Of a stretch of DNA of 64,000 bases, positions 8,724-21,374 are shown one piece after another; the first letter of the stretch is position 1; every line of letters begins with the position of its first letter. The position numbers and the translations under genes were made by a program. Origin of the DNA: Microbacterium terregens (lineage in GTDB: Bacteria > Actinomycetota > Actinomycetes > Actinomycetales > Microbacteriaceae); the NCBI RefSeq assembly GCF_039534975.1, contig NZ_BAAAWH010000001.1:2728001-2792000 (forward strand), in the 5' to 3' direction. Below the pieces are notes generated by a model that ran no database searches, had not been told where the DNA came from, and worked only from the letters and a program-made list of their open reading frames with translations.

Positions 8724-8900
8724 CCCCCGATCGTAAGACCTGAGTATCGACGCAGAGCGGATCGGTGCGCAGGCACCGGCGGAGCAGGCGAAAGGAACGT
8801 TCCTCTTCCCGCGGAGACATCGAAGGGCGTCACTGGAGGGGAGGGTCTCGGCTGGGTAGCCTGCAGCGTATGGCCATCGCAAGCGCGCTTTCACAGGAAC

Positions 8901-8915
8901 GGGACCTTCGGCCCT
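8901..8915. promoter_or_regulatory. DosR-type box 1
   Basis: GGGACCTTCGGCCCT matches the near-palindromic DosR/DevR binding consensus of actinobacteria (GGGAC-N4-G-N-CCC) in every conserved position. It lies 72 bp upstream of the PNPOx-like gene at 8988, in the region shared with the divergent lactonase gene. A DosR-like regulator is encoded 6.6 kb away at 15501. Confidence 0.7.
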
Positions 8916-8987
8916 CACCCGCTGAGGCAGCGAACGATTCGCTGGGTGAAGAACTGTGCTGCCGCGACAAGACCCGAGGGGGACGGT

Positions 8988-9425
8988 ATGGATGGAACGG
9001 ATGATGCGCTCGTCTTCTCGTTGAGCGAGGACGAATGCTGGAACCTGCTTGCACGGCGTGAGCTGGGGCGCCTCGCCGTAGCGGTAGACGGAAAGCCCGA
9101 CATCTTCCCCGTGAACTACGTGGTCGATGGCGCGCGCGTGTTGTTCCGCACCGCGCCCGGATCGAAGCTCGCTGATCTCTCATCGAACCCCGACGTCGCT
9201 TTCGAAGTCGACGAATACGACGCCACGTCCGCCGCGAGCGTGGTGTTGAAGGGGGTCGCCACGCGTCTCGAGCTGCAGAGCGAGATCGACCTCGCCGATG
9301 CACTTCCGCTCGCTTCGTGGATCCCTACGCTCAAGTACCGCTGGGTGCGGATCGCCCCGGTCTCCATCTCCGGCAGACGGTTCGAACGCGGCCCTGAGCC
9401 TCTTCGGTACCGCGCCTCAACCTGA
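8988..9425 (+). CDS. Pyridoxamine 5'-phosphate oxidase-like flavoprotein
   Basis: The 145-residue protein is a single split-barrel domain of the PNPOx-like superfamily (CWNLLARRELGRLAVA, DIFPVNYVVDG, VLFRTAPGSKL). Actinobacterial relatives bind FMN, F420 or haem; the cofactor here is not decided by sequence. The closest relative in the window is the longer protein at 17374, which shares the ELGRLA, FPVNY/FPLNF, APGSKL and VSGRRF/ISGRRF segments. A DosR-type box lies upstream, so expression under low oxygen is likely. The ATG at 8988 is the first in-frame start after the box. Confidence 0.8.
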   Translation: MDGTDDALVFSLSEDECWNLLARRELGRLAVAVDGKPDIFPVNYVVDGARVLFRTAPGSKLADLSSNPDVAFEVDEYDATSAASVVLKGVATRLELQSEIDLADALPLASWIPTLKYRWVRIAPVSISGRRFERGPEPLRYRAST

Positions 9426-9442
9426 TCCCGTTTCACGCTCAC

Positions 9443-9457
9443 AGGACCTTCGACCCT
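9443..9457. promoter_or_regulatory. DosR-type box 2
   Basis: AGGACCTTCGACCCT matches the DosR consensus except for A in the first position. It lies 55 bp upstream of the small membrane protein gene at 9513, immediately after the stop of the PNPOx-like gene, so the membrane protein appears to have its own box. Confidence 0.6.
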
Positions 9458-9512
9458 GCACTCGCGCCTCGGAGTCCTCGACGCTGGGTCGCACACCGAG
9501 CAGGAGGTCGGA

Positions 9513-9716
9513 ATGAGCGAGACCAGCCGCAGCGTCAGAGTGGTGCAGAAGGCGGGCCCGTGGGGGTTCTTCTTCCTCTTGGCATACATCGGCGCCGCGA
9601 TCTACTTCATCTCCCATTCCGATGGGAGCTTCTGGGGAGTCGTGCTGGGACTTCTGCACGCGATCGTGTGGCCGGTGTACCTGATCTATTACGGGTTGGA
9701 GGCGCTGTTACCGTGA
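9513..9716 (+). CDS. Small two-helix membrane protein
   Basis: A 67-residue protein with two hydrophobic helices (WGFFFLLAYIGAAIYFI and FWGVVLGLLHAIVWPVYLIYY). A strong CAGGAGG Shine-Dalgarno precedes the ATG. A DosR-type box is found 55 bp upstream. Tiny membrane proteins of this kind occur in actinobacterial dormancy clusters, without known function. Its last 9 bp overlap the end of the opposing hydrolase gene. Confidence 0.75.
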   Translation: MSETSRSVRVVQKAGPWGFFFLLAYIGAAIYFISHSDGSFWGVVLGLLHAIVWPVYLIYYGLEALLP

Positions 9717-10955
9717 CGGCGCTCGCTGCCGCAGGGCAGTGCCGTCCGCCAGGGCGATGTCCAAGAATCCCACCACTCGCGCGCGCCATTCGTCGGGCGC
9801 GGTGCGCAGCGCTTCGACGTGGCCTGCGTCATCAGCCACCCACACGTCTACGCGAGCCGGACCGACGGCAGCGAGTCGGGTCGCGACCGCCTGCTCGTCA
9901 GCGTCGTTCCCCGCCGCGATCAGAAGAAGCGGAGTGGTCGGAGCGTCGCGCACGGACTGTGCCAGGGTTGCCGGCGGACTCGGGGGCGTGAGCAGGTCGA
10001 CGAATCCGTAGGTGAGCAGGTCGAGCGTGACTTGCGCGACCCCTCGGACGCCGTACGCGTCGGCGAGCCACGTCTTGTCGGCCGCCGTACGCCCCGTCGC
10101 GCCTTCTGCGACGACAGCGCGGATCCGATCGTCCGTCCCCGCAGCCCCGATCGCCTCCTCGCCGCCCATCGACAACCCCACCACGGCGACCCGACGAGGG
10201 TCGACGTCCGTCCGGTCGACCAGCGCGTCGACCGCGGCCCGAATGTCCATCTCGCCGTACCATCCCAGGTCCATGCCCTGCCCGCCGCTGTTCCCGTGAC
10301 CGCGGGCGTCGGTGGCGAGGACGCCGAATCCGGCGTCGTGCAGGATCTGCGCGTGCGCCGCCGTGTCCCCCGCTGTGGATGCTGCTCCGTGGCGGAGCAC
10401 GACGGCCGCGCCGTTGCGCGATGGCAGATACCAACCCGACAAGTGCACGCCATCCGCTGCGGTCATCTCGATCTCCGTCGCGCCGGCGGGCATGGCCGCG
10501 CGCGACACGGAGCGCGGCGGATACACCGCCGCGAGCGCGACCGAGAGGCTGTAGACCGCGATCAGCACCGCGAGGAACCAGGGCAGCAGAATGAGGCGCG
10601 CCCATCCGTGGGTCGTGCGGAAGAGAGCAATGCCTGCGGTGACCACGAATGCGACCCCCGCTACCAGCGGGGCCACCGCGAGGGCGATGCCCAGCCCGCC
10701 GGCGCCCGTCCGTGGCAGCCCGACGCCGAGTCCGATCGATACCAGGAGCCAGCCCAGCAGGGTGGCGGCGGCGAAGACCAGGAGGCGCACGCCCACTCGA
10801 CGCCCATCGCCCGAGCGCGACTGCCGGGACGCGTCCACCGCTGCCGTGCGGACTGTGCTCACAGCGCTATCCGACGTCACCACTGCCGCCGTCACCAGAG
10901 CCGAACGTCCCGAGACGACGCCGGCCGGCTCAGGTCGACCCCGGCCCTGAGGCAC
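9708..10955 (-). CDS. Membrane-anchored alpha/beta hydrolase
   Basis: The 415-residue protein has about three N-terminal membrane helices (LLVFAAATLLGWLLVSIGLGV, GIALAVAPLVAGVAFVVTAG, LILLPWFLAVLIAVYSLSVAL), then a BAAT/dipeptidyl-peptidase-like hydrolase domain. The nucleophile elbow GLSMGG has Ser262; Asp351 (AAGNDADEQ) and His379 (DDAGHVEAL) complete the triad. The helices suggest that the catalytic domain sits on one face of the membrane. It lies between dormancy-type genes, but no clear DosR box precedes it. Substrate unknown. Confidence 0.8.
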   Translation of the reverse strand: MPQGRGRPEPAGVVSGRSALVTAAVVTSDSAVSTVRTAAVDASRQSRSGDGRRVGVRLLVFAAATLLGWLLVSIGLGVGLPRTGAGGLGIALAVAPLVAGVAFVVTAGIALFRTTHGWARLILLPWFLAVLIAVYSLSVALAAVYPPRSVSRAAMPAGATEIEMTAADGVHLSGWYLPSRNGAAVVLRHGAASTAGDTAAHAQILHDAGFGVLATDARGHGNSGGQGMDLGWYGEMDIRAAVDALVDRTDVDPRRVAVVGLSMGGEEAIGAAGTDDRIRAVVAEGATGRTAADKTWLADAYGVRGVAQVTLDLLTYGFVDLLTPPSPPATLAQSVRDAPTTPLLLIAAGNDADEQAVATRLAAVGPARVDVWVADDAGHVEALRTAPDEWRARVVGFLDIALADGTALRQRAPSR

Positions 10956-10971
10956 TCAAGGCTCCGCGCTG

Positions 10972-12243
10972 TCAGGTGTTCGGCGCTGTCTGGTGGTCAA
11001 GCTCGGCCTTCATTCCCCGGGCGAACTCGGCGCCGGCCACGTGATCGGGGTCGAAGTGGACGCCGCAGTACAGGCGTCCGTCGTAGGAGATCGCCGCCAC
11101 GCCCAGCCGGACGTTCGCCGCGAGCACGGCGACCGGCCAGATGGCCGCGATGCGGGCACCCGCGAGCTCGACGGCACCGCTGGGCCCGGGAACATTGGTG
11201 ACGAACCCGGCGACCATGTGCTGGCGGCGAGCCAACCGATCCATGAGTCGCGCGCCGACCGGTCCGCGCATGAACTCGAGCGTGCCCTGCTGCCGTGCGG
11301 TCGTCTTCTCCACCTTCGTCTGGCGGGCGATGTTCCGGATGCGCGCCTGCGGATCCGACTCGCGCAGCGGCAGTCGCACGAGCATGACGCCGACCTGATT
11401 GCCCGCCGTGCCTCGGCGGCGCAAAGCCACCGGCACGGACACCGGCAGTGCATCCGGGATCCCCTCGCCGGCTGCCGTCAGCGCCGCACGGTAGCCCGCC
11501 GCAACGGCGGCGAGGAGCGCATCGTTGACGGTCGCACCGCACACGCGGGCATTCTCCTCGAGTGCGGTGAGGCCGGCGTCCAGGAAGGTGACGCCACGAC
11601 GGGCGCTCCGCTCCCCCAGGAGCACCGTCGATCCGACCTCGCGACCGCTGAGCGTCAGGCGCATGCGGTGCAACCTGAACATCGCCCTCGCGAGGATGCT
11701 GCGCAGGTCTCGTTCGAGAGCCGGCACCGCCGCGGGCCGGGGTGCATCTGCCGCCGCAACCGATGCCGCACCCGGATGGAAGATCTGCTGCACGATGGCC
11801 ACCGCGGCCATTCCGTCGGCCAGGGCGTGGTGGATACGCAGCACCATCGCCACCCCGACGGGCCCCGCGCCGGGGACGAGGAGCAGCTCCCACATCGGGC
11901 GATCCCTCGGCAGCGGCACGCTCATCAGCTCACCGCACAGGCGCTCCAGCCCCGGCAGCCCTCCCACGGCGGCGACGAGCCGGATGTGTTCCTCCAGGTC
12001 GGGCGGTGCCTCCGCCCACCGGTGCCGGTGACCGTCCGCCACGGCGACTCGGCGCAGCTGTGGCAGCGTGGCGATCCGCTCACCGACGTGCCTGCGCACG
12101 GCATCCACATCAAGCACACCCCCGGCATGGACGAACCCGCCCTCTGCCAGCAGCCCGGCGACCAGGAACACATTCACCTGGCCGGGGTGATCGAGCACGA
12201 GGTTGGCCTCGTCGACCGCGGCCAGGCGCGGGAGCCCTCTCAT
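10972..12243 (-). CDS. Wax ester synthase / diacylglycerol acyltransferase (WS/DGAT)
   Basis: The 423-residue protein carries the WS/DGAT active-site motif HHALADG at residues 138-144 (second His, His139, expected catalytic) and the family's NxPGP-type C-terminal motif (TNVPGPSGAVELAG). It would join acyl-CoA to a fatty alcohol or diacylglycerol, making wax esters or triacylglycerol as a carbon store. In Mycobacterium tuberculosis a WS/DGAT gene (tgs1) is a DosR target. Here a degenerate DosR-like site lies about 35 bp upstream, consistent with storage-lipid synthesis in dormancy. The protein is slightly short for the family, but both motif regions are intact. Confidence 0.9.
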   Translation of the reverse strand: MRGLPRLAAVDEANLVLDHPGQVNVFLVAGLLAEGGFVHAGGVLDVDAVRRHVGERIATLPQLRRVAVADGHRHRWAEAPPDLEEHIRLVAAVGGLPGLERLCGELMSVPLPRDRPMWELLLVPGAGPVGVAMVLRIHHALADGMAAVAIVQQIFHPGAASVAAADAPRPAAVPALERDLRSILARAMFRLHRMRLTLSGREVGSTVLLGERSARRGVTFLDAGLTALEENARVCGATVNDALLAAVAAGYRAALTAAGEGIPDALPVSVPVALRRRGTAGNQVGVMLVRLPLRESDPQARIRNIARQTKVEKTTARQQGTLEFMRGPVGARLMDRLARRQHMVAGFVTNVPGPSGAVELAGARIAAIWPVAVLAANVRLGVAAISYDGRLYCGVHFDPDHVAGAEFARGMKAELDHQTAPNT

Positions 12244-12277
12244 GGGTCCATGATCGCCGCGCAGGTGCGATGAGCCT

Positions 12278-12292
12278 AGAGTCGTGAGTCCC
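12278..12292. promoter_or_regulatory. Degenerate DosR-like box
   Basis: On the minus strand the site reads GGGACTCACGACTCT: the GGGAC half and the central G-A-C fit, but the second half has CTC instead of CCC. It is 34 bp upstream of the WS/DGAT start and on the far side of the cupin gene's ribosome site, so it could serve either gene. Weaker than the other boxes. Confidence 0.4.
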
Positions 12293-12352
12293 GGTCGGGG
12301 GCATCATGGATGGATCCGGATGCATCGCGGCATCCCATCGAAGGAGACAGAC

Positions 12353-12829
12353 ATGACCATCAACGACGTCGGGCCCAACCCGAACGCCTTCGACATCGAG
12401 GCGGCCACCCGGCAGAACGAGAACTACCGGACGGTGGCGTGGACCGGAACGCACCTGCAGGTCACGCTGATGAGCATCCCGGTGGGCGAGTCCATCGGCC
12501 TGGAAGCCCACCCCGGAACGGATCAGTTCCTTCGGATCGATGCGGGCGAAGGAAAGGTCGTCATGGGGCCGGCCGAGGATCAGCTCGACTTCGAGCGTGA
12601 TGTCTCCGACGGGTGGTCGATCCAGGTTCCCGCCGGCACGTGGCACGATGTCCGCAACACCGGCGACACCCCCCTGCGCCTGTACACGATCTACGCGCCG
12701 TCGCATCACGCCGCCGGGATCGTGCAGGCGACCCGCGCCGACGCCGAGCACGATGAATCGGCCGGCACCGATGAGGCACCCAGCTGGACCGTTCAGCCGT
12801 CCGAAGGCCACCCCGACCAGCACGCCTGA
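12353..12829 (+). CDS. Cupin-domain protein
   Basis: The 158-residue protein is a single small cupin barrel: GESIGLEAHPGTDQFLRI for cupin motif 1 (His/Glu metal ligands partly replaced) and PAGTWHDVRNTGDTPLRLYTIYAP for motif 2. The start at 12353 follows AAGGAGACAG. The family is broadly annotated as mannose-6-phosphate-isomerase-like cupin; enzymatic activity is not established. It lies divergent to the WS/DGAT gene and upstream of the universal stress gene. Confidence 0.8.
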   Translation: MTINDVGPNPNAFDIEAATRQNENYRTVAWTGTHLQVTLMSIPVGESIGLEAHPGTDQFLRIDAGEGKVVMGPAEDQLDFERDVSDGWSIQVPAGTWHDVRNTGDTPLRLYTIYAPSHHAAGIVQATRADAEHDESAGTDEAPSWTVQPSEGHPDQHA

Positions 12830-12849
12830 TCCCACGGCCCCCGCCCGGC

Positions 12850-12864
12850 GGGACTTTGGACCCT
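12850..12864. promoter_or_regulatory. DosR-type box 3
   Basis: GGGACTTTGGACCCT is an excellent match to the mycobacterial DosR consensus. It lies 77 bp upstream of the GTG start of the tandem universal stress gene, which is followed by the kinase and DosR-like genes. If these form one transcript, the box would make the sensor system autoregulated, as in mycobacteria. Confidence 0.75.
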
Positions 12865-12941
12865 GGGATCGGTCGCCGGGCGGATCGTAGCCTCGGAGCT
12901 GCCGCGCGATGAAGAGCGCGTCGAGCGGCCGGGAGGCAGCT

Positions 12942-13772
12942 GTGGAACGCATGACGGTGGGCTTCGATGGGACCGAGGCATCGTTCGTCGCCCTGGACTG
13001 GGCGGCGCAACGGGCGTCGGGGCGGCCGATCCAGGTGGAGATCGCCACGGTCGATGTGGCGGACCTGTTCGCCGAAGACGTTGTCGATGACGCACTCGAG
13101 GATGCCGTGCGACGGTTCCGCAACATCGCGCCCGACGCCGAGGTCAGCGCGACCGATTTCGCGGGAAGGATGCCGGGCGCCCTGCTTCACGCGGCACGGC
13201 TCTCGGATCTCCTGGTGATCGGGGCGCATCACCGCCGACCCGTCCGTTCCGCGCTGACCGGATGGCGACCGCTGCGTATCGTGTCGCATTCCGAGGTGCC
13301 GATCGTGGTCGTGCCGGACGATTGGACGGACACCTCGGGTCCGATCCTGGTCGGAATCGACGACGATGACTCGTCCTCCGGCGCGGTGGAGTTCGCGTCC
13401 GCCGAGGCCGCGGCCAGCGGTGTGGCCCTCACGCTGCTGCACGCCTGGCGGATGCCGGGACCGACCATGGACGGATCCGTCGCGCTGCTGCCGTCGCCCA
13501 TCGAAGAGAAGGCAGCTCAACGTCGCGTTCTCGACCGTGTCTGCGCCCAGGTCGTCGAGACCCACCCGGAGGTGAAGGTGGACTGCATCCTCGCTCGGGA
13601 CAGCCCCTCGCCCGCTCTGCTGACGGAGTCGCGTCGGTCGTCGCTGCTCGTCATCGGCACGCATCGTCGAGGCCTGCTGGCCGGGTCCTTCCTGGGCTCG
13701 GTGGGTCAGGACGTGCTGGTCGAGGCGCGCGTGCCGATCTGCGTGGTCCCTGCGACCGCATCCACGCCGTAG
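12942..13772 (+). CDS. Tandem universal stress protein
   Basis: The 276-residue protein has two UspA domains. The first begins MTVGFDGTEASFVALDWAA and the second PILVGIDDDDSSSGAVEFA, ending in LLVIGTHRRGLLAGSFLGSVGQ, which contains the ATP-binding G-x2-R-G-x9 pattern of ATP-type Usp domains. The first domain has the weaker VIGAHHRRPVRSALTGW version. The GTG at 12942 is preferred because GGGAGG lies 6 bp upstream. Position next to a DosS/DosR pair mirrors Rv3134c beside dosRS in M. tuberculosis. A perfect DosR box lies upstream. Confidence 0.9.
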   Translation: MERMTVGFDGTEASFVALDWAAQRASGRPIQVEIATVDVADLFAEDVVDDALEDAVRRFRNIAPDAEVSATDFAGRMPGALLHAARLSDLLVIGAHHRRPVRSALTGWRPLRIVSHSEVPIVVVPDDWTDTSGPILVGIDDDDSSSGAVEFASAEAAASGVALTLLHAWRMPGPTMDGSVALLPSPIEEKAAQRRVLDRVCAQVVETHPEVKVDCILARDSPSPALLTESRRSSLLVIGTHRRGLLAGSFLGSVGQDVLVEARVPICVVPATASTP

Positions 13773-13827
13773 TGCCGGTATGGGGCGGCATGCGTTCTCG
13801 CTAGGATCGCGTCGACGGGAGACGGTG

Positions 13828-15504
13828 ATGACCGACGACGCAGCGGCAGACGAACGCAGAGTCGGCTCGTCAGCGGACAGCGCAGGCACTTCCCGTTCCG
13901 AGCGTCGCGTGCGCGACCTGCTGCGGGCGAGTACGTCGATCGTGGAGCGGCTGGACCTGGAGGTCGTTCTCCGCCGCATCGTCGAGGCGGGAATGAAGCT
14001 TGTCGGCGCTCGGTACGGCGCGCTGGGCGTGATCAGTCGCGAAGGCGGCCTGGAGCGCTTCATCCACGTGGGCATCGACCGCGACATGGCCACCGCGATC
14101 GGCCACCTGCCGACGGGTCGCGGTCTGCTCGGCGCGGTCATCACCGACCGGGAGCCGATTCGCTTGGCGCATCTGGCTGACGATCCGCGCTCGGTCGGCT
14201 TTCCGGACCACCACCCGGACATGGACTCCTTCCTGGGCGTCCCCGTGCGGGTCGGCGAACAGATCTACGGCAATCTCTACCTGACCCAGGGCGAGAGCGG
14301 GCCGTTCAGTGCGGACGATCAGGAACTCATCGTCGCGTTGGCGGCGACCGCGGGAATCGCGATCGAGAACGCGCACCTGTACGACGTGGCGAAGACGCGG
14401 GAGGCGTGGAACGCGACGATCGCAGACGTCATGGCGGCGATGCTGGACGTGTCCGGCGAGAACGTCCTGGACGTCCTCGCCGAGCGCGTCGCAGCGTTGA
14501 TCGACGCGGACCTCGTCGCCGTCGCCATCCCGCACGGCGACAACGAGCTCATCCTCTCCACCGTGCACGGCCGATCCGCCACGCAACTGCGCGGCCGCAC
14601 GTTCAGCGCTGCCGGGACGCTCACCGCCCGCGCTCTGGCGAGCCGGCAGGCCGTGAGCATCGAGGGCGAGCCGGCCACGGCCATGTTCGATCTGCGACCC
14701 GGTCTCGGGCCGACCGTCGCCATCCCGCTCTTCGCGGGCGACGAACCGCTGGGCGTCCTCACCATCTCACGCAAGCCCGACGGCCCGGGCTTCACGGCTG
14801 CGGACCTCGAGATGGCCTTCGCGTTCGCCGCCCAGGCGAGCATCGCGCTGGAGGTGGTGCGTGCCAGAGACGACCGCAGACGTCTGGAGACCACGCAGGA
14901 CCGGGCCCGAATCGCCCGAGACCTGCACGACCAGGTCATCCAGCGACTGTTCGGCGCCGGACTCGCCCTCCAGGGCGTGTCCTCGCTCGTGGACGCCGAC
15001 TCATCCGCGGCCATCGAGGCTCAGATCGACGTGATCGATGCCACCATCAAAGACATCCGCACGATCATCTTCGCCCTCAGCAGCGGCGACCGGCCCGGCA
15101 CCAAGCGCCTGCGCGATCGGCTGCTCGACGTCGCCTCCGATGTCGCCGACTCGTTGCCGACGCCGCCGAGGATCGCCTTCGCCGGCCCCCTCGACAGCCT
15201 CGTCTCGCTGGGTCTGGCGGACGACATGGTGGCCGTGCTCCGCGAACTGCTGACCAACATCGTCAAACACGCGCACGCTCACACCGTCGAGATCGCCGTC
15301 GCGGTCACCGACGACCGGGTCGAGCTGCGCGTGGACGACAACGGAGTGGGTGTGCCGGATTCGGTTCCCCGCAGCGGCCTGGCGAACATCGCCACCCGCG
15401 CCGCCCTGCGCGGCGGTGACTGCGAGGTCACGCGACTGCCCGGTGGTGGCACGCGCGTGCGGTGGCACGCGCCGACGGACAACGAGGAAGGAGCCGACGG
15501 ATGA
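13828..15504 (+). CDS. DosS/DevS-like double-GAF sensor histidine kinase
   Basis: The 558-residue protein has GAF A (about 40-190), GAF B (about 205-350), a HisKA_3 dimerisation domain with ARDLHDQVIQRLF (phosphate acceptor His367) and a C-terminal HATPase with LRELLTNIVKHA and DDNGVGVP. GAF A closely follows mycobacterial DosS: VGFPDHHPDM corresponds to the segment holding the haem ligand His149 of DosS, and His129 is the aligned residue. That predicts a haem-based oxygen/NO/CO or redox sensor. The stop overlaps the regulator start (ATGA), so the two are coupled. The ATG at 13828 follows CGGGAGACG. Confidence 0.93.
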   Translation: MTDDAAADERRVGSSADSAGTSRSERRVRDLLRASTSIVERLDLEVVLRRIVEAGMKLVGARYGALGVISREGGLERFIHVGIDRDMATAIGHLPTGRGLLGAVITDREPIRLAHLADDPRSVGFPDHHPDMDSFLGVPVRVGEQIYGNLYLTQGESGPFSADDQELIVALAATAGIAIENAHLYDVAKTREAWNATIADVMAAMLDVSGENVLDVLAERVAALIDADLVAVAIPHGDNELILSTVHGRSATQLRGRTFSAAGTLTARALASRQAVSIEGEPATAMFDLRPGLGPTVAIPLFAGDEPLGVLTISRKPDGPGFTAADLEMAFAFAAQASIALEVVRARDDRRRLETTQDRARIARDLHDQVIQRLFGAGLALQGVSSLVDADSSAAIEAQIDVIDATIKDIRTIIFALSSGDRPGTKRLRDRLLDVASDVADSLPTPPRIAFAGPLDSLVSLGLADDMVAVLRELLTNIVKHAHAHTVEIAVAVTDDRVELRVDDNGVGVPDSVPRSGLANIATRAALRGGDCEVTRLPGGGTRVRWHAPTDNEEGADG

Positions 15505-16145
15505 CGCGCGTGTTCCTGCTCGATGACCACGAGATCGTCCGACGCGGCATCGCACAGCTGGTCGACGCGGAACCCGACCTCGAGGTGGTCGGCGAAGCGG
15601 CCAACGTGCGCGAGGCGATGCGCCGGATCGAGGCCACCCGGCCCGATGTCGCCGTACTGGATGTGCGGCTCCCCGACGGGAACGGCATCGACCTGTGCCG
15701 CGACATCCGCTCCACGCATCCGGAGGTCTTCTGCCTCATCCTGACCGGCTACGACGACGATCAGGCGCTGCGCTCCGCGGTCCTCGCCGGCGCCAGCGGC
15801 TACGTCCTGAAGGATGTGCGCAGTGGCCTGCTCGTGCAGGCGATCCGCCGTGCCGCCGCCGGAGGCACCGTCCAGCCGCCCGACGTGATGTGGCGAGCCG
15901 CCCGAGCCCTGCACAGCGAGCATTCCGACCGTCCCGATCCGGCCGTCCCCGCACTGTCGCTGCGGGAGAGTCAGGTGCTGTCGCTGATCGCCGAGGGCCT
16001 GACCAATCGCGAGATCGGCGACCGGCTCGGGATCGCGGAGAAGACGGTCAAGAACTACGTCAGTGGCCTGCTCGCCAAGCTCGGCATGGAGCGTCGCACG
16101 CAAGCGGCCGTGTACGGCGCCGAGCGCAAGCACCATTCGGACTAG
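15501..16145 (+). CDS. DosR/DevR-like NarL-family response regulator
   Basis: The 214-residue regulator begins MTRVFLLDDHEIVRRG, with phosphoacceptor Asp54 in AVLDVRLPDGNGIDLCRDI, the same residue number as in M. tuberculosis DosR. The C-terminal LuxR-type helix-turn-helix has LTNREIGDRLGIAEKTVKNYVSGLLAKLGMERRTQAAVY; the recognition helix AEKTVKNYV keeps the Lys and Asn residues used by DosR to contact its box. It should bind the GGGAC-type sites listed in this region and activate the dormancy genes when phosphorylated by the adjacent kinase. Gene symbol not assigned because orthology cannot be tested here. Confidence 0.93.
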   Translation: MTRVFLLDDHEIVRRGIAQLVDAEPDLEVVGEAANVREAMRRIEATRPDVAVLDVRLPDGNGIDLCRDIRSTHPEVFCLILTGYDDDQALRSAVLAGASGYVLKDVRSGLLVQAIRRAAAGGTVQPPDVMWRAARALHSEHSDRPDPAVPALSLRESQVLSLIAEGLTNREIGDRLGIAEKTVKNYVSGLLAKLGMERRTQAAVYGAERKHHSD

Positions 16146-16170
16146 CCGCCGCGCTCGCGCACCAGACGAC

Positions 16171-16185
16171 GGGACGTTCGGCCCA
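16171..16185. promoter_or_regulatory. DosR-type box 4
   Basis: GGGACGTTCGGCCCA fits the DosR consensus in all core positions. It lies 60 bp upstream of the flavodoxin gene and 26 bp beyond the response regulator stop, marking a new transcription unit. Confidence 0.7.
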
Positions 16186-16245
16186 TGTGCGCGATGCCCG
16201 GCAGGTGCAGACTCCCCATGCCAAGCCAGCGAAGGGGAAGGGACA

Positions 16246-16782
16246 ATGAACGCACTGATCGTCTACGAATCGATGTTCGGCAACACCAGGCAGATCGCCG
16301 AAGCGATTGCCGAAGCACTCCAGGCAGCGGGCACGACCGTCACGGTGACCACCGCGGCGAACGCCCCCGTCGAGCTGAGCGGTCTCGACCTGGTGGTGAT
16401 CGGTTCACCAACCCACGCGCACACGCTGCCGCAACCCTCGTCCCGGAAAGACGCCGCGGCCTGGGCCGACGATGAAAAGAAGCAGCTGCATCTCGAGCCC
16501 GGCGCACAGGATCCGGGCGTGCGGGAATGGCTGGAACGCGTTCCGGTCGCCGAAGTGAACGCGCGGTTCGCCGCCTTTTCGACGCGCGCGGACTTTCCGC
16601 TGATCTTCGCCGGCGACGCCGCCGCCGCCATCAAGCGTCGGCTTCGTAAGCGGGGCGTGCACGTCGATGCGCACGAGAACTTCCTCGTCGACTTCGACAG
16701 CCGGCTCCTGCCCGACGAGCAGCAGCGCGCCCGCGATTGGGCGGTGGCGACCTTGCTTCCGGTCACCGCGAGTCAGAGCTGA
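16246..16782 (+). CDS. Flavodoxin-domain protein
   Basis: The 178-residue protein has a flavodoxin fold with the FMN phosphate-binding loop YESMFGNTRQIAEAI at residues 7-21 and the 50s-loop VVIGSPTHAHTLP. It is longer than short-chain flavodoxins because of a C-terminal helical part (RDWAVATLLPV). It would carry electrons on FMN; the partner enzyme is unknown. An AAGGGGAAGGGAC ribosome site precedes the ATG at 16246, and a DosR-type box lies 60 bp upstream, so induction under low oxygen is expected. Confidence 0.85.
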   Translation: MNALIVYESMFGNTRQIAEAIAEALQAAGTTVTVTTAANAPVELSGLDLVVIGSPTHAHTLPQPSSRKDAAAWADDEKKQLHLEPGAQDPGVREWLERVPVAEVNARFAAFSTRADFPLIFAGDAAAAIKRRLRKRGVHVDAHENFLVDFDSRLLPDEQQRARDWAVATLLPVTASQS

Positions 16783-16790
16783 GCAGCGAC

Positions 16791-17267
16791 ATGCAATCGG
16801 CCACCGCGTCGCGCGGACTCGACTATGTCGGCGGCAGGAGCAGGTTCGCGAGGACCGGGCTCATGCTGACCCAGGCCTTCGTCGCGGTCACCGCCCTCGC
16901 GGGCGGATCCGCCCTCATCGTCGCCGAGCCTCTGCCGCAGACGGCCACTGTGCTCAGCCCACCCGAGGACTACCTGCTCGGCACGCCTTTCACGAGCTAT
17001 CTCGTGCCCGGGCTGCTTCTCGCGGTGGTCGTCGGCGGGGTTCACACCGCCGCGTTCCTGTTGAACCTCACCAGGAGCAGCTGGCGCGTCCTGGGCGCCG
17101 CGACAGCGGGTTTCGCGCTGCTGATCTGGATCTTCGTCCAGATGGTCTTCATCCCGTTCAGCTTCCTGCAGGCCGTCTATTTCGTGGCCGGCCTTGCTGA
17201 GATCGGGTTGATCATGCTGGCGCTGGGGATCACGGACCCGGCGGCAGGTGAGTCGAGGTCCCGCTGA
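16791..17267 (+). CDS. Four-helix membrane protein
   Basis: The 158-residue protein has about four membrane helices (LTQAFVAVTALAGGSALIV, YLVPGLLLAVVVGGVHTAAFLL, VLGAATAGFALLIWIFVQMVF, FVAGLAEIGLIMLALGI). It begins 8 bp after the flavodoxin stop, so it is very likely co-transcribed with it under box 4. A start at 16737 inside the flavodoxin gene is possible but less likely. No specific family is recognised. Confidence 0.75.
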   Translation: MQSATASRGLDYVGGRSRFARTGLMLTQAFVAVTALAGGSALIVAEPLPQTATVLSPPEDYLLGTPFTSYLVPGLLLAVVVGGVHTAAFLLNLTRSSWRVLGAATAGFALLIWIFVQMVFIPFSFLQAVYFVAGLAEIGLIMLALGITDPAAGESRSR

Positions 17268-17295
17268 TCGTCGAGCTTCACGACCGGATGCCGGT

Positions 17296-17310
17296 GGGAC
17301 CAACGGCCCT
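17296..17310. promoter_or_regulatory. DosR-type box 5
   Basis: GGGACCAACGGCCCT fits the DosR consensus. It lies 63 bp upstream of the second PNPOx-like gene, in the gap after the four-helix membrane protein. Confidence 0.7.
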
Positions 17311-17373
17311 ATGACGAGATCGCTTCATCGGGCACGGTGAGATCACATCCAGATTTCACCCTCCGGAACAAGG

Positions 17374-18003
17374 ATGGAAGTGACCTTGAGCATGGAACCT
17401 CGCGTCGAACCCAACCCCTATCGCGCGCAGCCCCACCCCGAACCGCTTTCGGCGGCGGAGGCGGGGGTGGAGGAGTTGACCATCGCGGAGTGCTGGCGCC
17501 TCGTCGAGCTGAGCCGGCTGGGTCGGTTGGCGCTGGAGGCCTTCGACGGGCACCCCGACGTCTTTCCGCTCAACTTCCTCGTGCACGACGGGAGCGTGTT
17601 CGTCCGATCCGCCCCGGGCAGCAAACTGCGCAGCATGGCGGCGAATCCGGCCGTCGCCTTCGAGGTCGACGGCTCCGATGAGAAGTACTACTGGAGCGTG
17701 GTCATTCGCGCCAAGGCGGAGCGGATGGACACCGACGCCGAGATCGAGGCGTCCGGCGTCCTGAATCTCGTGTCGTGGAGTCCGACCTCCAAGCATGACT
17801 TCGTACGGCTCGTCCCGGTGACGGTCAGCGGCAGACGCTTCCCGCGACACCTGCGTCGCACCTGGATCCGGCGTGACCTGAATGCGCAAGCCTCGGAACA
17901 GAGCACCGCACCGCGCAGCCCCACGGATCCGGCGCCCGCGGTAGGGAGCCCCGAGCACGACAAGCCGCAGCCGATCCCCCACTTCGCTCCGCTCCCCCAC
18001 TGA
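17374..18003 (+). CDS. Pyridoxamine 5'-phosphate oxidase-like flavoprotein, long form
   Basis: The 209-residue protein has a PNPOx-like split barrel (CWRLVELSRLGRLALEAFDG, VFPLNFLVHDG, FVRSAPGSKLRSM) with a Pro/Ala-rich, probably disordered tail of about 45 residues. It is a paralogue of the protein at 8988, sharing the core motifs. A second possible start at 17392 would shorten it by six residues. It lies 37 bp upstream of the single-domain universal stress gene, and box 5 precedes both. Confidence 0.8.
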   Translation: MEVTLSMEPRVEPNPYRAQPHPEPLSAAEAGVEELTIAECWRLVELSRLGRLALEAFDGHPDVFPLNFLVHDGSVFVRSAPGSKLRSMAANPAVAFEVDGSDEKYYWSVVIRAKAERMDTDAEIEASGVLNLVSWSPTSKHDFVRLVPVTVSGRRFPRHLRRTWIRRDLNAQASEQSTAPRSPTDPAPAVGSPEHDKPQPIPHFAPLPH

Positions 18004-18039
18004 CCGGCCGACCATCGCGGAATCCAAGGAGCAGAAACC

Positions 18040-18546
18040 ATGAGCAGGCAGGCAGATAAGAGGCCGATCATCGTCGCTGTCGACGGCTCCCCGTCATCGA
18101 TCGAGGCACTCCGCAAGGCGTCCGAACTCGCCCGAGCGCTGGACGCCCCGCTCGAAGCCGTGACGGCGTGGCAGTTTCCGATGGGGTTCGACGGCGCGGG
18201 CTACGCCACCCAGACGTGGTCTCCTGAGGCGGAGAGCCAGACGCTCCTGAACTCCGCGATCGAAACCGCTTTTCCGGACGGGCCGCCCGCAGACCTCAGA
18301 CTGACGGTCACCGCCGGACCCGCCGCCGGTGTCCTCATCGACAAGAGCAACGACGCTGCCATGCTCGTCATGGGCAGCCGTGGTCGTGGCGGGTTCGCCG
18401 GGCTGCTGCTCGGGTCGGTGAGCACGGCGTGCGCCCAGCACGCGCACTGCCCCGTCTTGATCATGCGCGGCCCCGAACGGCCGTCGAAGAAGACGAAGAA
18501 GACGAAGAACCGCGGCGCTGTCGAGGACCTCCAGCCGACCGTCTGA
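18040..18546 (+). CDS. Universal stress protein with lysine-rich tail
   Basis: The 168-residue single UspA domain begins PIIVAVDGSPSSIEALRKA and has the ATP-loop motif MLVMGSRGRGGFAGLLLGSVSTACAQHA near its end, intact for nucleotide binding. An unusual basic tail, KKTKKTKNRG, follows the domain and might bind nucleic acid or membrane phosphates; this is only a guess. CAAGGAGCAG precedes the ATG. It probably shares the transcript of the PNPOx-like gene under box 5. Confidence 0.88.
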   Translation: MSRQADKRPIIVAVDGSPSSIEALRKASELARALDAPLEAVTAWQFPMGFDGAGYATQTWSPEAESQTLLNSAIETAFPDGPPADLRLTVTAGPAAGVLIDKSNDAAMLVMGSRGRGGFAGLLLGSVSTACAQHAHCPVLIMRGPERPSKKTKKTKNRGAVEDLQPTV

Positions 18547-18668
18547 CCCGCCCCGACGAAGCACCAGCCTCCGCCAGGCGCGCTCGGCGTCCTGTCAGGA
18601 GCCGCGTTTTCGCGATGTTAGGCTTCTGCACGGCAGTCGTACCGACACCACTGTCAGTAAGATTGAAC

Positions 18669-18776
18669 GTGTTCGTTGCATGGCGTGACCTCGGCTTTGC
18701 CCGGGGCCGGTTCGCTCTCATCGCCTCCGTGGTGCTCCTCATCACCCTCCTGGTTGGCTTCCTCGAGGAACAGACC
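18669..18776 (+). pseudogene. Remnant of an FtsX-type ABC permease, in frame with the ATPase
   Basis: From a GTG at 18669 the frame encodes VFVAWRDLGFARGRFALIAS and a hydrophobic segment VVLLITLLVGFL. This matches the N-terminus and first helix of macrolide-export/DevC-type ABC permeases. Right after this helix the sequence passes in frame to the ATPase start at 18777. Nearly the whole permease (several hundred residues) is therefore missing, most likely by an internal deletion. The product could be an ATPase with a membrane-anchoring N-terminus, or the ATPase may start separately. Confidence 0.6.
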
Positions 18777-19478
18777 ATGATCGAACTTCGCGACGTCACC
18801 CTCACCTACCCGGACGGCGACGGGATCATCACCGCGATCAACGCGGCGAGCCTCATCGTCAAGCCCGGCGAGATCACGGCGATCACCGGCCCGAGCGGCT
18901 CGGGCAAGTCGAGCGTGCTGGCCGTGGCCTCGACGTTGATCGCGCCGCAGCAGGGCTCGGTGCTGATCAACGGCACCCCCGCTGCGGACCTGTCCCGCAT
19001 CCAGACCGCGGCCCTGCGCCGCGACCAGATCGGAATCGTGTTCCAGCAGGCCAACCTGCTCGCCTCGCTCACCGCCCTCGAGCAGCTCGAGGTGATGAGC
19101 CACCTCGGCTCGACCCCGACCAGGCGTTCGCGGTCCGAGACGCGGGCGAAGGCCATGGAACTGCTGGCCGCGGTCGGCCTGGAGAAGAAGGCGCACAAGC
19201 GCCCGAACGCTCTCTCCGGGGGTGAGCGCCAGCGGGTGAACATCGCCCGCGCGTTCATGAACGACCCCTCCGTTCTGATCGTCGACGAGCCCACCAGCTC
19301 CCTGGATCAGGAACGCGGCTCCGCCATCATCGAGCTCATCATCGAGCTGACGCGCACGCGCAACGTGGCCACCTTGCTCGTGACCCACGACCGCACGCAC
19401 CTGCCCCTGATGGACGCCGTACTCGCCATGGTCGACGGCGACCTGAGCGCGCACGCGCCCGTGGCAGTGGCTGCATAG
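18777..19478 (+). CDS. ABC transporter ATP-binding protein (LolD/MacB-like)
   Basis: The 233-residue ATPase has an intact nucleotide-binding domain: Walker A GPSGSGKSS near residue 40, Q-loop QQANLL, signature LSGGERQRVNIARAF, Walker B VLIVDEPTSSLD and H-loop VTHD. Family neighbours pair this protein with an FtsX-like permease, but here only the first helix of that permease survives just upstream and in frame. A divergent-end TetR gene follows, as is common for such exporters. Without its permease the transport role is probably lost or is provided by a permease elsewhere. Confidence 0.85.
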   Translation: MIELRDVTLTYPDGDGIITAINAASLIVKPGEITAITGPSGSGKSSVLAVASTLIAPQQGSVLINGTPAADLSRIQTAALRRDQIGIVFQQANLLASLTALEQLEVMSHLGSTPTRRSRSETRAKAMELLAAVGLEKKAHKRPNALSGGERQRVNIARAFMNDPSVLIVDEPTSSLDQERGSAIIELIIELTRTRNVATLLVTHDRTHLPLMDAVLAMVDGDLSAHAPVAVAA

Positions 19479-19489
19479 AGCTCGTCGTC

Positions 19490-19524
19490 AAGCCCCCTGG
19501 ATGCTCCTGGCGTCCGGGGGGCTT
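19490..19524. terminator. Hairpin terminator between convergent genes
   Basis: The arms AAGCCCCC (19490-19497) and GGGGGCTT (19517-19524) form a perfect stem between the ABC ATPase stop and the TetR stop. The AA/TT ends give short A and T tracts on both sides, fitting a bidirectional terminator. Confidence 0.75.
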
Positions 19525-19540
19525 CGTGCGTTGAGGCTCG

Positions 19541-20134
19541 TCAGGCCCGCGGCACTGCGGCCGGCTGCACCGCGGCGTGGATCAGGGCCAGCGTCGTGCG
19601 GGTGACGGCATCCGGATCCGAACCCGACTCGATGGCGCCCATCGCCGACTCCAGGACCCCGCCGAGCAGACGCGCGGTGATCATCAGATCGGGCACGCCC
19701 AACTGCTGCAGTGCGCCCATGAACGGTGCGATCTGCTCGTGGTGCAGCTCGGCCAGGCGGGCGCGGCATCCGTCCGGCAACTGGGCTGCAGACAGCGCAG
19801 CGGCGGGCCGGTGCGCTCCCTCGGCGGCCTGGCGCAGCGTCTCGCGGACGTACGCGTCCATCACCTCGGCAGGCTCGGTGAGCCCGTCGAGGGCGGCGGC
19901 GAGCTGAGCGTTCGAGCGCGGAAAGGAGTCCTCGATGATGGCCGCCAGGATGCCGGCGGCCGAGTCGAAGTACTGGTAGACGCTGGGGCGGGCCAAGCCG
20001 GTTGCCGCGCCGACGGCCGCGGGGGTGACTGCCGAGACGCCGCCCTGCACGAGCAGCGTGGTCGCGGCCGCCAGGAGCGCCTCACGTTGACGCCTGCGGT
20101 GCTCAGCCACGGTAGGGGCTGAAATCTTCGGCAT
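19541..20134 (-). CDS. TetR family transcriptional regulator
   Basis: The 197-residue protein has an N-terminal TetR helix-turn-helix (QREALLAAATTLLV, VSAVTPAAVGAATGLARPSVYQYF) followed by a helical ligand domain. It converges on the ABC ATPase gene. In related genomes a TetR of this kind next to an ATPase-permease pair controls the exporter; here the exporter is broken, so the regulator may be a leftover or may control the zinc dehydrogenase downstream on the same strand. The ligand is unknown. Confidence 0.88.
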   Translation of the reverse strand: MPKISAPTVAEHRRRQREALLAAATTLLVQGGVSAVTPAAVGAATGLARPSVYQYFDSAAGILAAIIEDSFPRSNAQLAAALDGLTEPAEVMDAYVRETLRQAAEGAHRPAAALSAAQLPDGCRARLAELHHEQIAPFMGALQQLGVPDLMITARLLGGVLESAMGAIESGSDPDAVTRTTLALIHAAVQPAAVPRA

Positions 20135-20237
20135 GGCTTAGGACTCCTATCATGCGCGTCCCCCCAGCCTACCGACCAGATGAGGCTCGGGACCGAAGAT
20201 ACGGACACTGAGTCAGCAAAAGACGCCGGTGCGGTGA

Positions 20238-21293
20238 TCACGCCGTGAGGATGACCTTGAGCGCCTTCGTCTCGGCCGCGCGGCCGAAGGTGTCATAGGC
20301 ATTCATGATGTCCTCGAGCGCGAAGCGGTGGCTGATGAAACCAGCGACGTCCAGTCGCCCCTGGGCGAGCATCTTGATGAGCATGCGCGCCGTGTCGGTG
20401 TTGACGAGTCCGGTGGTGATCGTGAGGTTCTGGATCCACGCCGTCTCGAGCGGAAAGCTCACCGGCTTGCCGTGCACGCCGACGTTGGCGACGTGGCCGC
20501 CCGGTCGCACGATCGCCAGCGACATGTCCCAGGTCGCCGGCACGCCGACGGCCTCGATGGCGACATCCACGCCCAGGCCATCCGTGAGCGCGAGCACCTG
20601 CTCCTTCCAGTCCGAGTCCGTCGAGACCACACCGTCGCTGGCGCCGAAGCGTTTGGCCTGCTCGACCCGGTTGGCGTCGATGTCGATCGCGATGACGCGG
20701 CTGGGTCCGTACAGAGCGGCCGTGGTCATCGCGGCGAGACCGACGGGGCCGGCGCCGATGACGGCCACGACATCGCCCGGCTTGACCGCGCCGTACTTGA
20801 TGCCGATCTCGTGCCCCGTCGGCAGAATGTCGCTGATCATGGCAGCCTCTTCGGGCGCAACGCCCTCAGGCACCTTGTGCAGCGAGGTCTCGGCGAAGGG
20901 CACCCGCACGTATTCAGCCTGGGTGCCGTCGATGAGGTGGCCCAGGATCCAGCCGATCCCCGATGCTCCCTCGTCCGCGAGGCAATGCGAATACATGCCC
21001 TCCAGGCAATAGCTGCACTTGCCGCACGCCGAGATGCACGAGATGATCACGCGATCGCCGACGGCGATCTCGGTGACGGCCGCACCGACCTCGGTGACCA
21101 CGCCGACCCCCTCGTGACCGAGGATGCGTCCTGGTTCCACGGTCGGAACGTCTCCCTTGATGATGTGCAGATCGGTCCCGCAGATCGTCGTCGTCTCGAC
21201 CTTGACGATCGCGTCTGTCGGCTTCTGAATTGTCGGAGCCGGCACGTCCTGCCAGACGATCGCACCCGGACCTGTGTACACCAACGCTCGCAT
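20238..21293 (-). CDS. Zinc-dependent alcohol dehydrogenase (MDR family)
   Basis: The 351-residue medium-chain dehydrogenase has the catalytic-zinc residues Cys38 (TTICGTDLH) and His60-Glu61 (GHEGVG), the structural-zinc cysteines 90, 93, 96 and 104, and the NAD(P) motif GAGPVG. It would interconvert an alcohol and an aldehyde or ketone. The ATG at 21293 follows GAGGAGG and is preferred over an upstream extension. A DosR-type box lies 67 bp upstream, so NADH recycling by this enzyme during oxygen limitation is a reasonable inference. Confidence 0.9.
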   Translation of the reverse strand: MRALVYTGPGAIVWQDVPAPTIQKPTDAIVKVETTTICGTDLHIIKGDVPTVEPGRILGHEGVGVVTEVGAAVTEIAVGDRVIISCISACGKCSYCLEGMYSHCLADEGASGIGWILGHLIDGTQAEYVRVPFAETSLHKVPEGVAPEEAAMISDILPTGHEIGIKYGAVKPGDVVAVIGAGPVGLAAMTTAALYGPSRVIAIDIDANRVEQAKRFGASDGVVSTDSDWKEQVLALTDGLGVDVAIEAVGVPATWDMSLAIVRPGGHVANVGVHGKPVSFPLETAWIQNLTITTGLVNTDTARMLIKMLAQGRLDVAGFISHRFALEDIMNAYDTFGRAAETKALKVILTA

Positions 21294-21359
21294 CTTGCCT
21301 CCTCGGTCTTCCCGCTGTGCGGGATAACCCATGGTCCTCTTCGCGCCGCGGCAGGGACA

Positions 21360-21374
21360 GGGACCTAAGACCCA
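21360..21374. promoter_or_regulatory. DosR-type box 6
   Basis: GGGACCTAAGACCCA fits the DosR consensus. It lies between the minus-strand zinc dehydrogenase (start 21293) and the plus-strand membrane protein gene (start 21477). Being nearly palindromic it could act on either; the distance of 67 bp to the dehydrogenase matches the spacing seen at the other boxes. Confidence 0.65.

What the first reader, a model, noticed from the sequence alone, without database searches (positions are those of the whole stretch)
8901..21374. DosR-like dormancy regulon in a compact 12-kb block
Five sites match GGGAC-N4-G-N-CCC fully (8901, 12850, 16171, 17296, 21360), one with A in the first position (9443), and one is degenerate (12278). 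They precede genes for two PNPOx-like proteins, a small membrane protein, a WS/DGAT, universal stress proteins plus DosS/DosR-like pair, a flavodoxin and a zinc dehydrogenase. Each good box lies 55-77 bp before a start. The consensus and the gene types (stress proteins, storage-lipid synthase, DosRS) are established for the mycobacterial DosR regulon; here regulator and targets are packed together, which allows a self-contained hypoxia response to be proposed for this organism.
Basis: partly seen in the sequence, partly recalled or inferred. Interest (0 to 1): 0.8.

Follow-up and report, generated by a model that had tools for sequence, protein, structure and literature searches.

The report
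DosR-type oxygen-response gene block in Microbacterium
A bacterium carries a compact set of stress genes that appears to be switched on by a heme-based sensor and a regulator of the same kind that controls dormancy in mycobacteria and Streptomyces; the kind of system is known, and this is a well-preserved new example of it.

Summary
The genome is Microbacterium-like. At 8.9-21.4 kb a DosS-type kinase and DosR-type regulator sit among universal stress proteins, PNPOx-like proteins, a flavodoxin, a WS/DGAT and a Zn-dehydrogenase. A box matrix trained only on 40 other genomes of the genus finds seven sites of at least 8 bits in the 64-kb window: all in this block, all intergenic, 56-101 bp before a called start. 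In the genus, and separately in 30 other actinobacterial loci, a -10-like ANNNT lies at a fixed spacing from the box, so the box overlaps -35. The motif alone is at chance level genome-wide; clustering, position and conservation carry the case. Packing of targets around the regulator is already described for Streptomyces coelicolor osdRK, where one box matches ours over 16 nt. New member of a known kind; low-oxygen induction is inferred, not shown.

The parts
8901..8914 (+). DosR-type box GGGACCTTCGGCCC, 73 bp before PNPOx-like gene
   Evidence: exact; 20.5 bits with matrix from other genomes; CGGGACCTTCGGCCCT at 8900-8915 identical to the OsdR site of SCO5979 in PMC5069765; no phased -10 seen
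8988..9425 (+). PNPOx-like (Pyridox_ox_2) protein 1
   Evidence: PF12900 1.8e-28; relatives boxed in 7 of 15, control pattern 1
9443..9456 (+). DosR-type box AGGACCTTCGACCC with -10-like GACGCT at 9480-9485
   Evidence: 18.5 bits; offset 37
9513..9716 (+). 67-aa hydrophobic, probably membrane protein (read from the sequence, no predictor run)
   Evidence: no Pfam match; 3 of 3 relatives boxed
9708..10796 (-). alpha/beta hydrolase
   Evidence: PF12146 7.1e-13; start at 10796 by codon model; a longer ORF to 10955 exists and would place the 10898 box inside it
   Evidence: 12.5 bits, seventh best in window; no phased -10 at offsets 36-38; the single relative of the hydrolase is unboxed
10972..12243 (-). 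WS/DGAT (wax ester/triacylglycerol synthase family)
   Evidence: PF03007 1.1e-21, PF06974 2e-20; TIGR02946 212 bits, below its cut-off of 310
12279..12292 (-). degenerate box GGGACTCACGACTC before WS/DGAT, with -10-like GATCAT at 12255-12250 and ATG where +1 would fall
   Evidence: 3.0 bits only; geometry of the leaderless class seen in relatives
12353..12829 (+). cupin protein, not supported as a regulon member
   Evidence: PF07883 4.7e-14; no box of 8 bits or more before it
12850..12863 (+). best box GGGACTTTGGACCC, 78 bp before the USP-DosS-DosR genes, -10-like TAGCCT at 12888-12893
   Evidence: 23.9 bits; offset 38
12942..13772 (+). tandem universal stress protein, first gene of the presumed regulator operon
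   Evidence: PF00582, two stretches; relatives boxed in 18 of 38
13828..15504 (+). DosS/DosT-type histidine kinase (GAF-GAF-HisKA_3-HATPase)
   Evidence: PDB 2vzw E 1.1e-41, 2w3d 9.1e-40, 3zxo 1.9e-19; H129, Y151, G67, H367
15501..16145 (+). DosR/DevR-type NarL-family response regulator
   Evidence: PDB 3c3w (DevR) E 1.1e-67 against next best VraR-type 4e-40; D54 and recognition helix AEKTVKNYV
16171..16184 (+). box GGGACGTTCGGCCC, 61 bp before flavodoxin, -10-like CAGACT at 16208-16213
   Evidence: 20.1 bits; offset 37
16246..16782 (+). flavodoxin-domain protein
   Evidence: PF12724 1.6e-10; relatives boxed in 6 of 17
16791..17267 (+). 158-aa hydrophobic protein, possibly co-transcribed with flavodoxin
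   Evidence: no Pfam match; 0 of 9 relatives have a box of their own
17296..17309 (+). box GGGACCAACGGCCC, 64-70 bp before PNPOx-like 2 and USP, -10-like CACGGT at 17333-17338
   Evidence: 20.1 bits; offset 37
17374..18003 (+). PNPOx-like protein 2
   Evidence: PF12900 1.8e-21; relatives boxed in 10 of 15
18040..18546 (+). single-domain universal stress protein, likely co-transcribed with PNPOx-like 2
   Evidence: PF00582 3.6e-29; relatives boxed in 5 of 15, control pattern 1
20238..21293 (-). zinc-dependent alcohol dehydrogenase family protein
   Evidence: NCBIfam matches to dehydrogenases of this superfamily, none over its cut-off; distantly related ADHs (29-37% in the loci printed) boxed in 12 of 19
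21360..21373 (-). box (read toward the dehydrogenase: GGGTCTTAGGTCCC), 66 bp before it, -10-like GACCAT at 21336-21331
   Evidence: 15.0 bits; offset 37

Best explanation
The block is the core regulon of a DosR/DevR/OsdR-type two-component system. The kinase's first GAF domain keeps the heme-pocket residues of DosS/DosT (proximal His, distal Tyr) and has Gly where wild-type M. tuberculosis DosS has Glu, as in DosT; I therefore infer a heme-based sensor of oxygen (and probably NO/CO) that turns active when O2 leaves the heme. It would phosphorylate Asp54 of the regulator, which then binds GGGAC-N-TT-N-G-N-CCC boxes as a dimer. Each box is centred near -41.5, overlaps -35 and lies a fixed distance from a weak -10, so the regulator would act as a class II activator. 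The strongest box drives USP-DosS-DosR (positive autoregulation). Six further boxes drive two PNPOx-like proteins (one with a USP), a small membrane protein, a hydrolase, a flavodoxin and a Zn-dehydrogenase; a weak one may drive WS/DGAT as a leaderless mRNA. Shown by sequence: families, residues, boxes, spacing, conservation. Inferred: heme binding, the signal, phosphotransfer, dimer binding, operons, activation and physiology.
For: Regulator: best PDB hit is DevR 3c3w, 1.1e-67, far above a VraR-type protein at 4e-40. Kinase: DosT GAF 1.1e-41 and DosS GAF about 1e-40; ATPase domains of DosS 1.9e-19 and DosT 6.1e-18. Heme His and Tyr are kept here and in 91 of 94 relatives each. No second kinase of this build was found in the genome; the other matches are weak and partial. 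Boxes: a matrix from 40 other genomes gives seven sites of at least 8 bits in the window, all in the block and intergenic; at 14 bits or more, 6 against a mean of 0.15 in 40 Markov controls. Conservation: 122 boxes against 33 control in the 40 genus loci; 129 exact boxes against 32 control in 80 named loci. Promoter geometry: ANNNT at offset 36-37 in 29 of 48 genus promoters and at 37-38 in 27 of 48 from loci not titled Microbacterium, against about 1 per offset elsewhere; 5 of 7 window boxes have it at 37-38 (P about 1e-5 to 4e-5, with the offsets 36-38 taken from the relatives). USP genes at four loci outside the block have no box of 8 bits or more nearby; best 6.5, inside a coding sequence. 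O2 loss activating DosT/DevS is as stated in PMC5069765 (passage).
Against: The motif by itself is not enriched genome-wide (44 against 50 control) and the bare count in the window is marginal (4 of 100 shuffles reach it). At the looser cut-off of 8 bits Markov controls average 3.2 sites, and one control sequence reached 19.7 bits. Two of the seven boxes (8901, 10898) lack the phased -10. In relatives many target-type genes have no full box (for example flavodoxin 6 of 17 with, USP 18 of 38 with), and the relatives of the hydrolase, WS/DGAT and 158-aa protein have none directly upstream (0 of 1, 0 of 2, 0 of 9). No expression, binding or spectroscopic data exist here.
Confidence: 0.9

Rival explanations
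1. The same two-component regulon, but the signal is not oxygen: the sensor responds to NO, redox state or entry into stationary phase, and the genes are a general stress set.
For: USP, PNPOx-like and flavodoxin proteins fit redox stress as well as hypoxia. In S. coelicolor the osdR mutant affects stress and development broadly (PMC5069765, abstract and section 12).
Against: Heme-pocket residues are kept and Gly stands at the Glu87 position, which by recalled work on DosT and DosS mutants favours reversible O2 binding. Boxed genes in relatives include phosphoketolase, lactate/malate dehydrogenase, PPDK and a sugar PTS (one member of each group scanned), which fits low-oxygen metabolism.
Confidence: 0.25
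2. The boxes are chance matches of a GC-rich palindrome in a GC-rich genome, next to an unrelated NarL-type two-component system.
For: Genome-wide the exact motif is as common as its reversed control, and 34 of 38 places outside the block lie in coding sequence.
Against: Clustering and intergenic position, seven of seven sites of at least 8 bits in the block, conservation before the same gene families in other genomes, and the phased -10 seen in two sets of promoters.
Confidence: 0.02
3. The regulon is not confined to the block: many further targets lie elsewhere in the genome behind degenerate boxes or reach the regulator indirectly.
For: One candidate outside, GGGACGTTCGGCCT 75 bp before a gene for an 83-aa hydrophobic protein (G000 3022099), has a phased -10. 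PMC5069765 reports OsdR binding to promoters without the consensus (passage). The scan here was partial.
Against: Of 38 exact and 27 one-mismatch places examined outside the block, 34 and 23 are in coding sequence. Of the four intergenic exact places, three were checked for a phased -10 in both directions and none had it.
Confidence: 0.35

Closest known systems
OsdR/OsdK (SCO0204/SCO0203) core regulon, Streptomyces coelicolor
   Same: Regulator and kinase of the same family; boxes cluster around the regulator genes and precede USP, PNPOx (SCO0214) and Zn-dehydrogenase (SCO0179) genes; the SCO5979 site CGGGACCTTCGGCCCT is identical to window 8900-8915 (PMC5069765 section 7). PPDK (SCO0208) is a boxed target there and in relatives of this genome.
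   Different: The Streptomyces consensus AGGGCCGATCGGCCCT usually has C where boxes of this genus usually have A at the fourth core base; its block contains nitrate reductase and nitroreductase genes and is larger; gene order differs. The window has WS/DGAT, flavodoxin and a hydrolase.
DosR/DevR-DosS/DosT regulon, Mycobacterium tuberculosis
   Same: Closest solved structures for both proteins; start-proximal box overlapping -35 (PMC3029386, passages); USP and WS/DGAT (tgs1) as target types and a USP gene heading the regulator operon (recalled).
   Different: About 48 genes spread over the genome there, with two kinases (recalled); here one kinase and, as far as examined, a single block. The kinase has DosT-type Gly at the position of DosS Glu87 (numbers recalled).
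Other DosR-type loci in the genus
   Same: Regulator matches at E of 4e-57 or better in 47 of 149 genus genomes examined, own included; the same boxes before USP, PNPOx, flavodoxin and ADH genes.
   Different: Gene content varies; some have two DosR-like genes, or PPDK, phosphoketolase, LDH-type or PTS genes behind boxes, which this block lacks.

Membership tests
DosR/DevR/OsdR response regulator | NarL-family receiver plus LuxR-type HTH with DevR as nearest solved relative | tested here: met
   PF00072, PF00196; 3c3w 1.1e-67
DosR/DevR/OsdR response regulator | Phospho-acceptor Asp54 and DNA-contact residues of the recognition helix (K179, K182, N183 in DosR, recalled) | tested here: met
   D54; EKTVKNYV aligned without change. 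D54 and the K, K, N positions are invariant in 120 of 120 matches, but AEKTVKNY was one of the patterns that collected 80 of those loci, so that invariance is partly by selection
DosS/DosT heme sensor kinase | Two GAF domains, HisKA_3 with phospho-His, HATPase | tested here: met
   H367
DosS/DosT heme sensor kinase | Proximal heme His (H149) and distal Tyr (Y171) in GAF-A (numbers recalled) | tested here: met
   H129 and Y151 by alignment to 2w3d-type chains and 2vzw; 91 of 94 relatives each (at least four records occur twice among them)
DosS/DosT heme sensor kinase | Binds heme and responds to O2, NO or CO | not testable with these tools
   needs purified protein
DosR regulon | GGGAC-type palindromic boxes, one or more per target promoter | tested here: met
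   One box of 8 bits or more per promoter in the window; paired boxes, reported for some M. tuberculosis promoters (PMC3029386, passages), were not seen here but occur in some relatives (L159, L174)
DosR regulon | Start-proximal box overlaps the -35 region | tested here: met
   by the phased -10-like element in relatives and in 5 of 7 window boxes; transcription starts themselves not mapped, and two boxes lack the element
DosR regulon | Induction by hypoxia or NO through the regulator | not testable with these tools
   no expression data

The most novel reading that the evidence does not exclude
In this organism the entire direct DosR-type regulon has contracted to one 12.5-kb cassette that carries sensor, regulator and essentially all functional boxes. 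With its patchy occurrence (47 of 149 genus genomes) and shuffling gene content, it behaves as a portable low-oxygen module. Its promoters follow one strict actinobacteria-wide design (box centred near -41.5, -10 starting 36-38 nt from the first base of the box), including a leaderless subclass to which WS/DGAT here belongs.
Probability: 0.25. Interest if true: 0.55.

Novelty: new member of a known kind. Interest (0 to 1): 0.36.

Why it matters
It extends the DosR/OsdR type of regulation to Microbacterium, an environmental genus, with sharp predictions (seven boxes, fixed promoter spacing, DosT-like heme pocket) that can be tested without a pathogen. The phased -10 found in two separate promoter sets offers a simple rule for picking likely DosR-type targets in GC-rich genomes, where the motif alone says little: here 44 exact hits against 50 for a control pattern.

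Tried and rejected
Bare motif as evidence: rejected as insufficient, since genome-wide counts equal the reversed control and 4 of 100 shuffles of the window reach five exact hits.

WS/DGAT box at 12279: 3.0 bits, a level reached by 27 places in the window. Kept only as possible, because the -10 and the ATG fall exactly where the leaderless class puts them (a post hoc estimate of about 1% for any of 12 genes).

Site at 17226 (one mismatch) scores 2.1 bits and lies inside the gene for the 158-aa protein: rejected. High-scoring exact sites elsewhere: 2129926 lies in a coding sequence that by eye is nadD-like, 1286176 in a coding sequence, 2878958 between convergent genes: rejected as targets. Among the 27 one-mismatch places, 2422869 has an ANNNT at offset 38 but overlaps the end of a gene that runs toward another: rejected.

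Cupin, ABC ATPase and TetR genes as regulon members: no support (no box of 8 bits or more before them in the window; 0 of 7 ABC and 0 of 2 TetR relatives boxed, and no cupin relative in the 40 loci).

Not finished: the AT-centred one-mismatch sites were listed only in part (100 of 182 rows), and the whole genome was not scanned with the matrix. From I scored 82 places outside the block, nine of them exact matches already held; of the other 73, I fetched 27: all 22 with a core score of at least 12, and five below. Six of 46 genomes with an orthologue were left out of the 40-locus set. No structure prediction and no family tree were made. The codon-model gene caller is my own, trained on window genes and applied also to other genera; its starts are approximate. 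In one search boxes with a called start on both sides were left out of the promoter sets.

Literature: searches 'Microbacterium + DosR + dormancy regulon' (one paper, unrelated by its passages), 'OsdR/OsdK/DosR regulon/Microbacteriaceae/Micrococcales/Actinomycetota' (20 of 383 listed), 'DosR + phosphoketolase + hypoxia' (2 papers) and 'DosR/leaderless/Arthrobacter' (15 of 74 listed) showed no report of this system in Microbacterium in the titles and abstract beginnings listed. The library is open-access only. Passages of PMC12919924 gave nothing on box-to-start spacing.
Full report
What is there. The window lies at 2,728,001-2,792,000 of contig 1 of a 3.57-Mb genome. The nearest named DosR relatives are in Microbacterium (79% in strain BR1, 77% in RU33B). 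Four contigs of its genus group have the same lengths as Microbacterium records (480377, 112765, 1537791 and 89365 bases), so I take the genus to be Microbacterium; that is an inference from contig lengths. Gene families were assigned with Pfam and NCBIfam. The order is: PNPOx-like, 67-aa hydrophobic protein, alpha/beta hydrolase (-), WS/DGAT (-), cupin, tandem USP, DosS-like kinase, DosR-like regulator, flavodoxin, 158-aa hydrophobic protein, PNPOx-like, USP, ABC ATPase, TetR (-), Zn-dehydrogenase (-).

The two-component pair. The regulator's best solved relative is DevR/DosR of M. tuberculosis (E 1.1e-67), well above VraR-type proteins (4e-40) and NarL (4e-31). Asp54 and the recognition helix AEKTVKNYV are identical. 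The kinase matches the DosT and DosS GAF domains (1.1e-41 and about 1e-40) and the DosS and DosT ATPase domains (1.9e-19, 6.1e-18). Its proximal heme His and distal Tyr are kept, and Gly stands where DosS has Glu87 (residue numbers and the wild-type Glu recalled). In 94 relatives these positions are H 91, Y 91, G 83 and E 5 (94 of 120 loci gave a full alignment, and at least four records occur in both source sets). No second kinase of this architecture was found in the genome; other matches are weak and partial. In the genus, 47 of 149 genomes (own included) have a regulator match at E of 4e-57 or better; the next best is 4e-53 at 47% identity, and I take the gap as the limit of orthology.

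The boxes. All five exact matches in the window lie in the block. On their own these counts are weak evidence: genome-wide there are 44 rows against 50 for the reversed control, and 4 of 100 window shuffles reach five. The clustering (P about 6e-7) and the position are not weak: 5 of 5 intergenic here, against 4 of 38 places elsewhere. The independent test is a matrix built from 100 distinct intergenic boxes in 40 other genus genomes (orthologues in six further genomes were not fetched). It gives seven window sites of at least 8 bits, from 12.5 to 23.9, all in the block; the next best in the window is 7.1 and coding. Forty Markov controls average 3.2 sites at 8 bits, 0.4 at 12 and 0.15 at 14, and the highest single control site reached 19.7. 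The seventh site (10898, minus) was not in the finding. The finding's 12279 site scores 3.0.

Conservation. In the 40 genus loci the relaxed box occurs 122 times against 33 for the reversed control. Genes with a box within 180 bp upstream, with control matches in brackets: small hydrophobic protein 3 of 3 (0), PNPOx2-like 10 of 15 (0), ADH-like 12 of 19 (0), tandem USP 18 of 38 (0), PNPOx1-like 7 of 15 (1), flavodoxin 6 of 17 (0), single USP 5 of 15 (1), DosS 12 of 40 (0), DosR 7 of 46 (0), other genes 43 of 464 (3), and none for relatives of the 158-aa protein (9), WS/DGAT (2), ABC (7), TetR (2) and hydrolase (1). In two relatives WS/DGAT lies downstream of a boxed gene in the same direction (L159, L184). 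Among 80 named loci there are 129 exact boxes against 32 control. USP genes at four loci outside the block have no box of 8 bits or more in the 3.4 kb around them; the best is 6.5 bits inside a coding sequence.

Promoter design. With 48 genus promoters aligned by the box (window excluded), A and T of an ANNNT element fall at offset 36 in 20 and at 37 in 9; other offsets average 0.93, maximum 5. In 48 promoters from 30 loci whose titles do not name Microbacterium, the same element falls at 37 in 20 and at 38 in 7, together 27 of 48. If the T is at -7, the box centre is near -41.5 and the box overlaps -35, as reported for DevR promoters (PMC3029386, passages read). In the window, 5 of 7 boxes have the element at 37-38; 8901 and 10898 do not. 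A leaderless subclass is likely but less firmly shown: ATG occurs at offset 48, where +1 would fall, in 6 genus promoters, but also at offset 80 in 6, and with GTG counted offsets 40 (9) and 80 (8) exceed 48 (6); in the other set ATG/GTG peaks at offset 49 (8, next 6). Five genus genes have a called start exactly 34 bp after the box. The WS/DGAT start lies at offset 49 with GATCAT at 37.

Outside the block. I examined 38 exact and 27 one-mismatch places. The only one with a sensible gene distance and a phased -10 toward that gene is 3022099, before an 83-aa hydrophobic protein beside a gene that by its DKTGT motif looks like a P-type ATPase. The scan was not complete (one search listed 100 of 182 rows). 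In relatives, further boxed genes include PPDK, phosphoketolase, an LDH-type dehydrogenase, a short-chain dehydrogenase, a beta-CASP nuclease and a sugar PTS (one member of each group scanned), which points to low-oxygen carbon metabolism.

Known or new. PMC5069765 (abstract, sections 7 and 12 and passages read) already describes OsdR/OsdK in S. coelicolor: same binding element as DevR, eight sites around osdR covering 20 of 22 genes from SCO0198 to SCO0219, USP, PNPOx and Zn-dehydrogenase targets, and one site identical over 16 nt to window 8900-8915. So the compact block is a known arrangement and this is a new member. My searches showed no report of it in Microbacterium in what they listed, within an open-access library. 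What may be new in detail is the phased promoter rule across actinobacteria and how small this regulon appears to be.

Noticed in passing
window 59726-63110 (-): BREX-type defence genes: BrxHI-like helicase (917 bits) and BrxD (641 bits), next to each other, in a lower-GC part of the window.
   Followed up: partly
window 47041-49134 (-): Old/GajA-like protein (PADLOC Old, 317 bits), suggesting a defence island from about 40 kb onward, where GC falls to 0.62-0.64.
   Followed up: partly
window 24524-27169 (-): 881-aa protein with DUF4062 and NB-ARC domains (STAND-type NTPase) of unknown role.
   Followed up: no
window 18669-19478 (+): ABC ATPase whose first 30 or so residues read by eye like the N-terminal membrane helix of an ABC permease; looks like a fusion left by an internal deletion (sequence; family).
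   Followed up: no
G000:C1:3022099-3022112 (-), locus L215: Possible extra DosR-type box GGGACGTTCGGCCT with phased -10, 75 bp before an 83-aa hydrophobic protein beside a P-type-ATPase-like gene.
   Followed up: partly
L151, L156, L164, L171, L177, L162: Boxed genes in other DosR loci of the genus: phosphoketolase, LDH-type dehydrogenase, PPDK, sugar PTS, beta-CASP nuclease, short-chain dehydrogenase.
   Followed up: partly
L158, L161, L163, L166, L181: Some genus genomes carry two DosR-like genes close together (for example 65% and 60% in L158).
   Followed up: no
L149-L188 against L001-L080 not titled Microbacterium: The favoured box to -10 spacing differs by one base: 36 in the genus set, 37 in the other set; the window itself mostly shows 37.
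   Followed up: no
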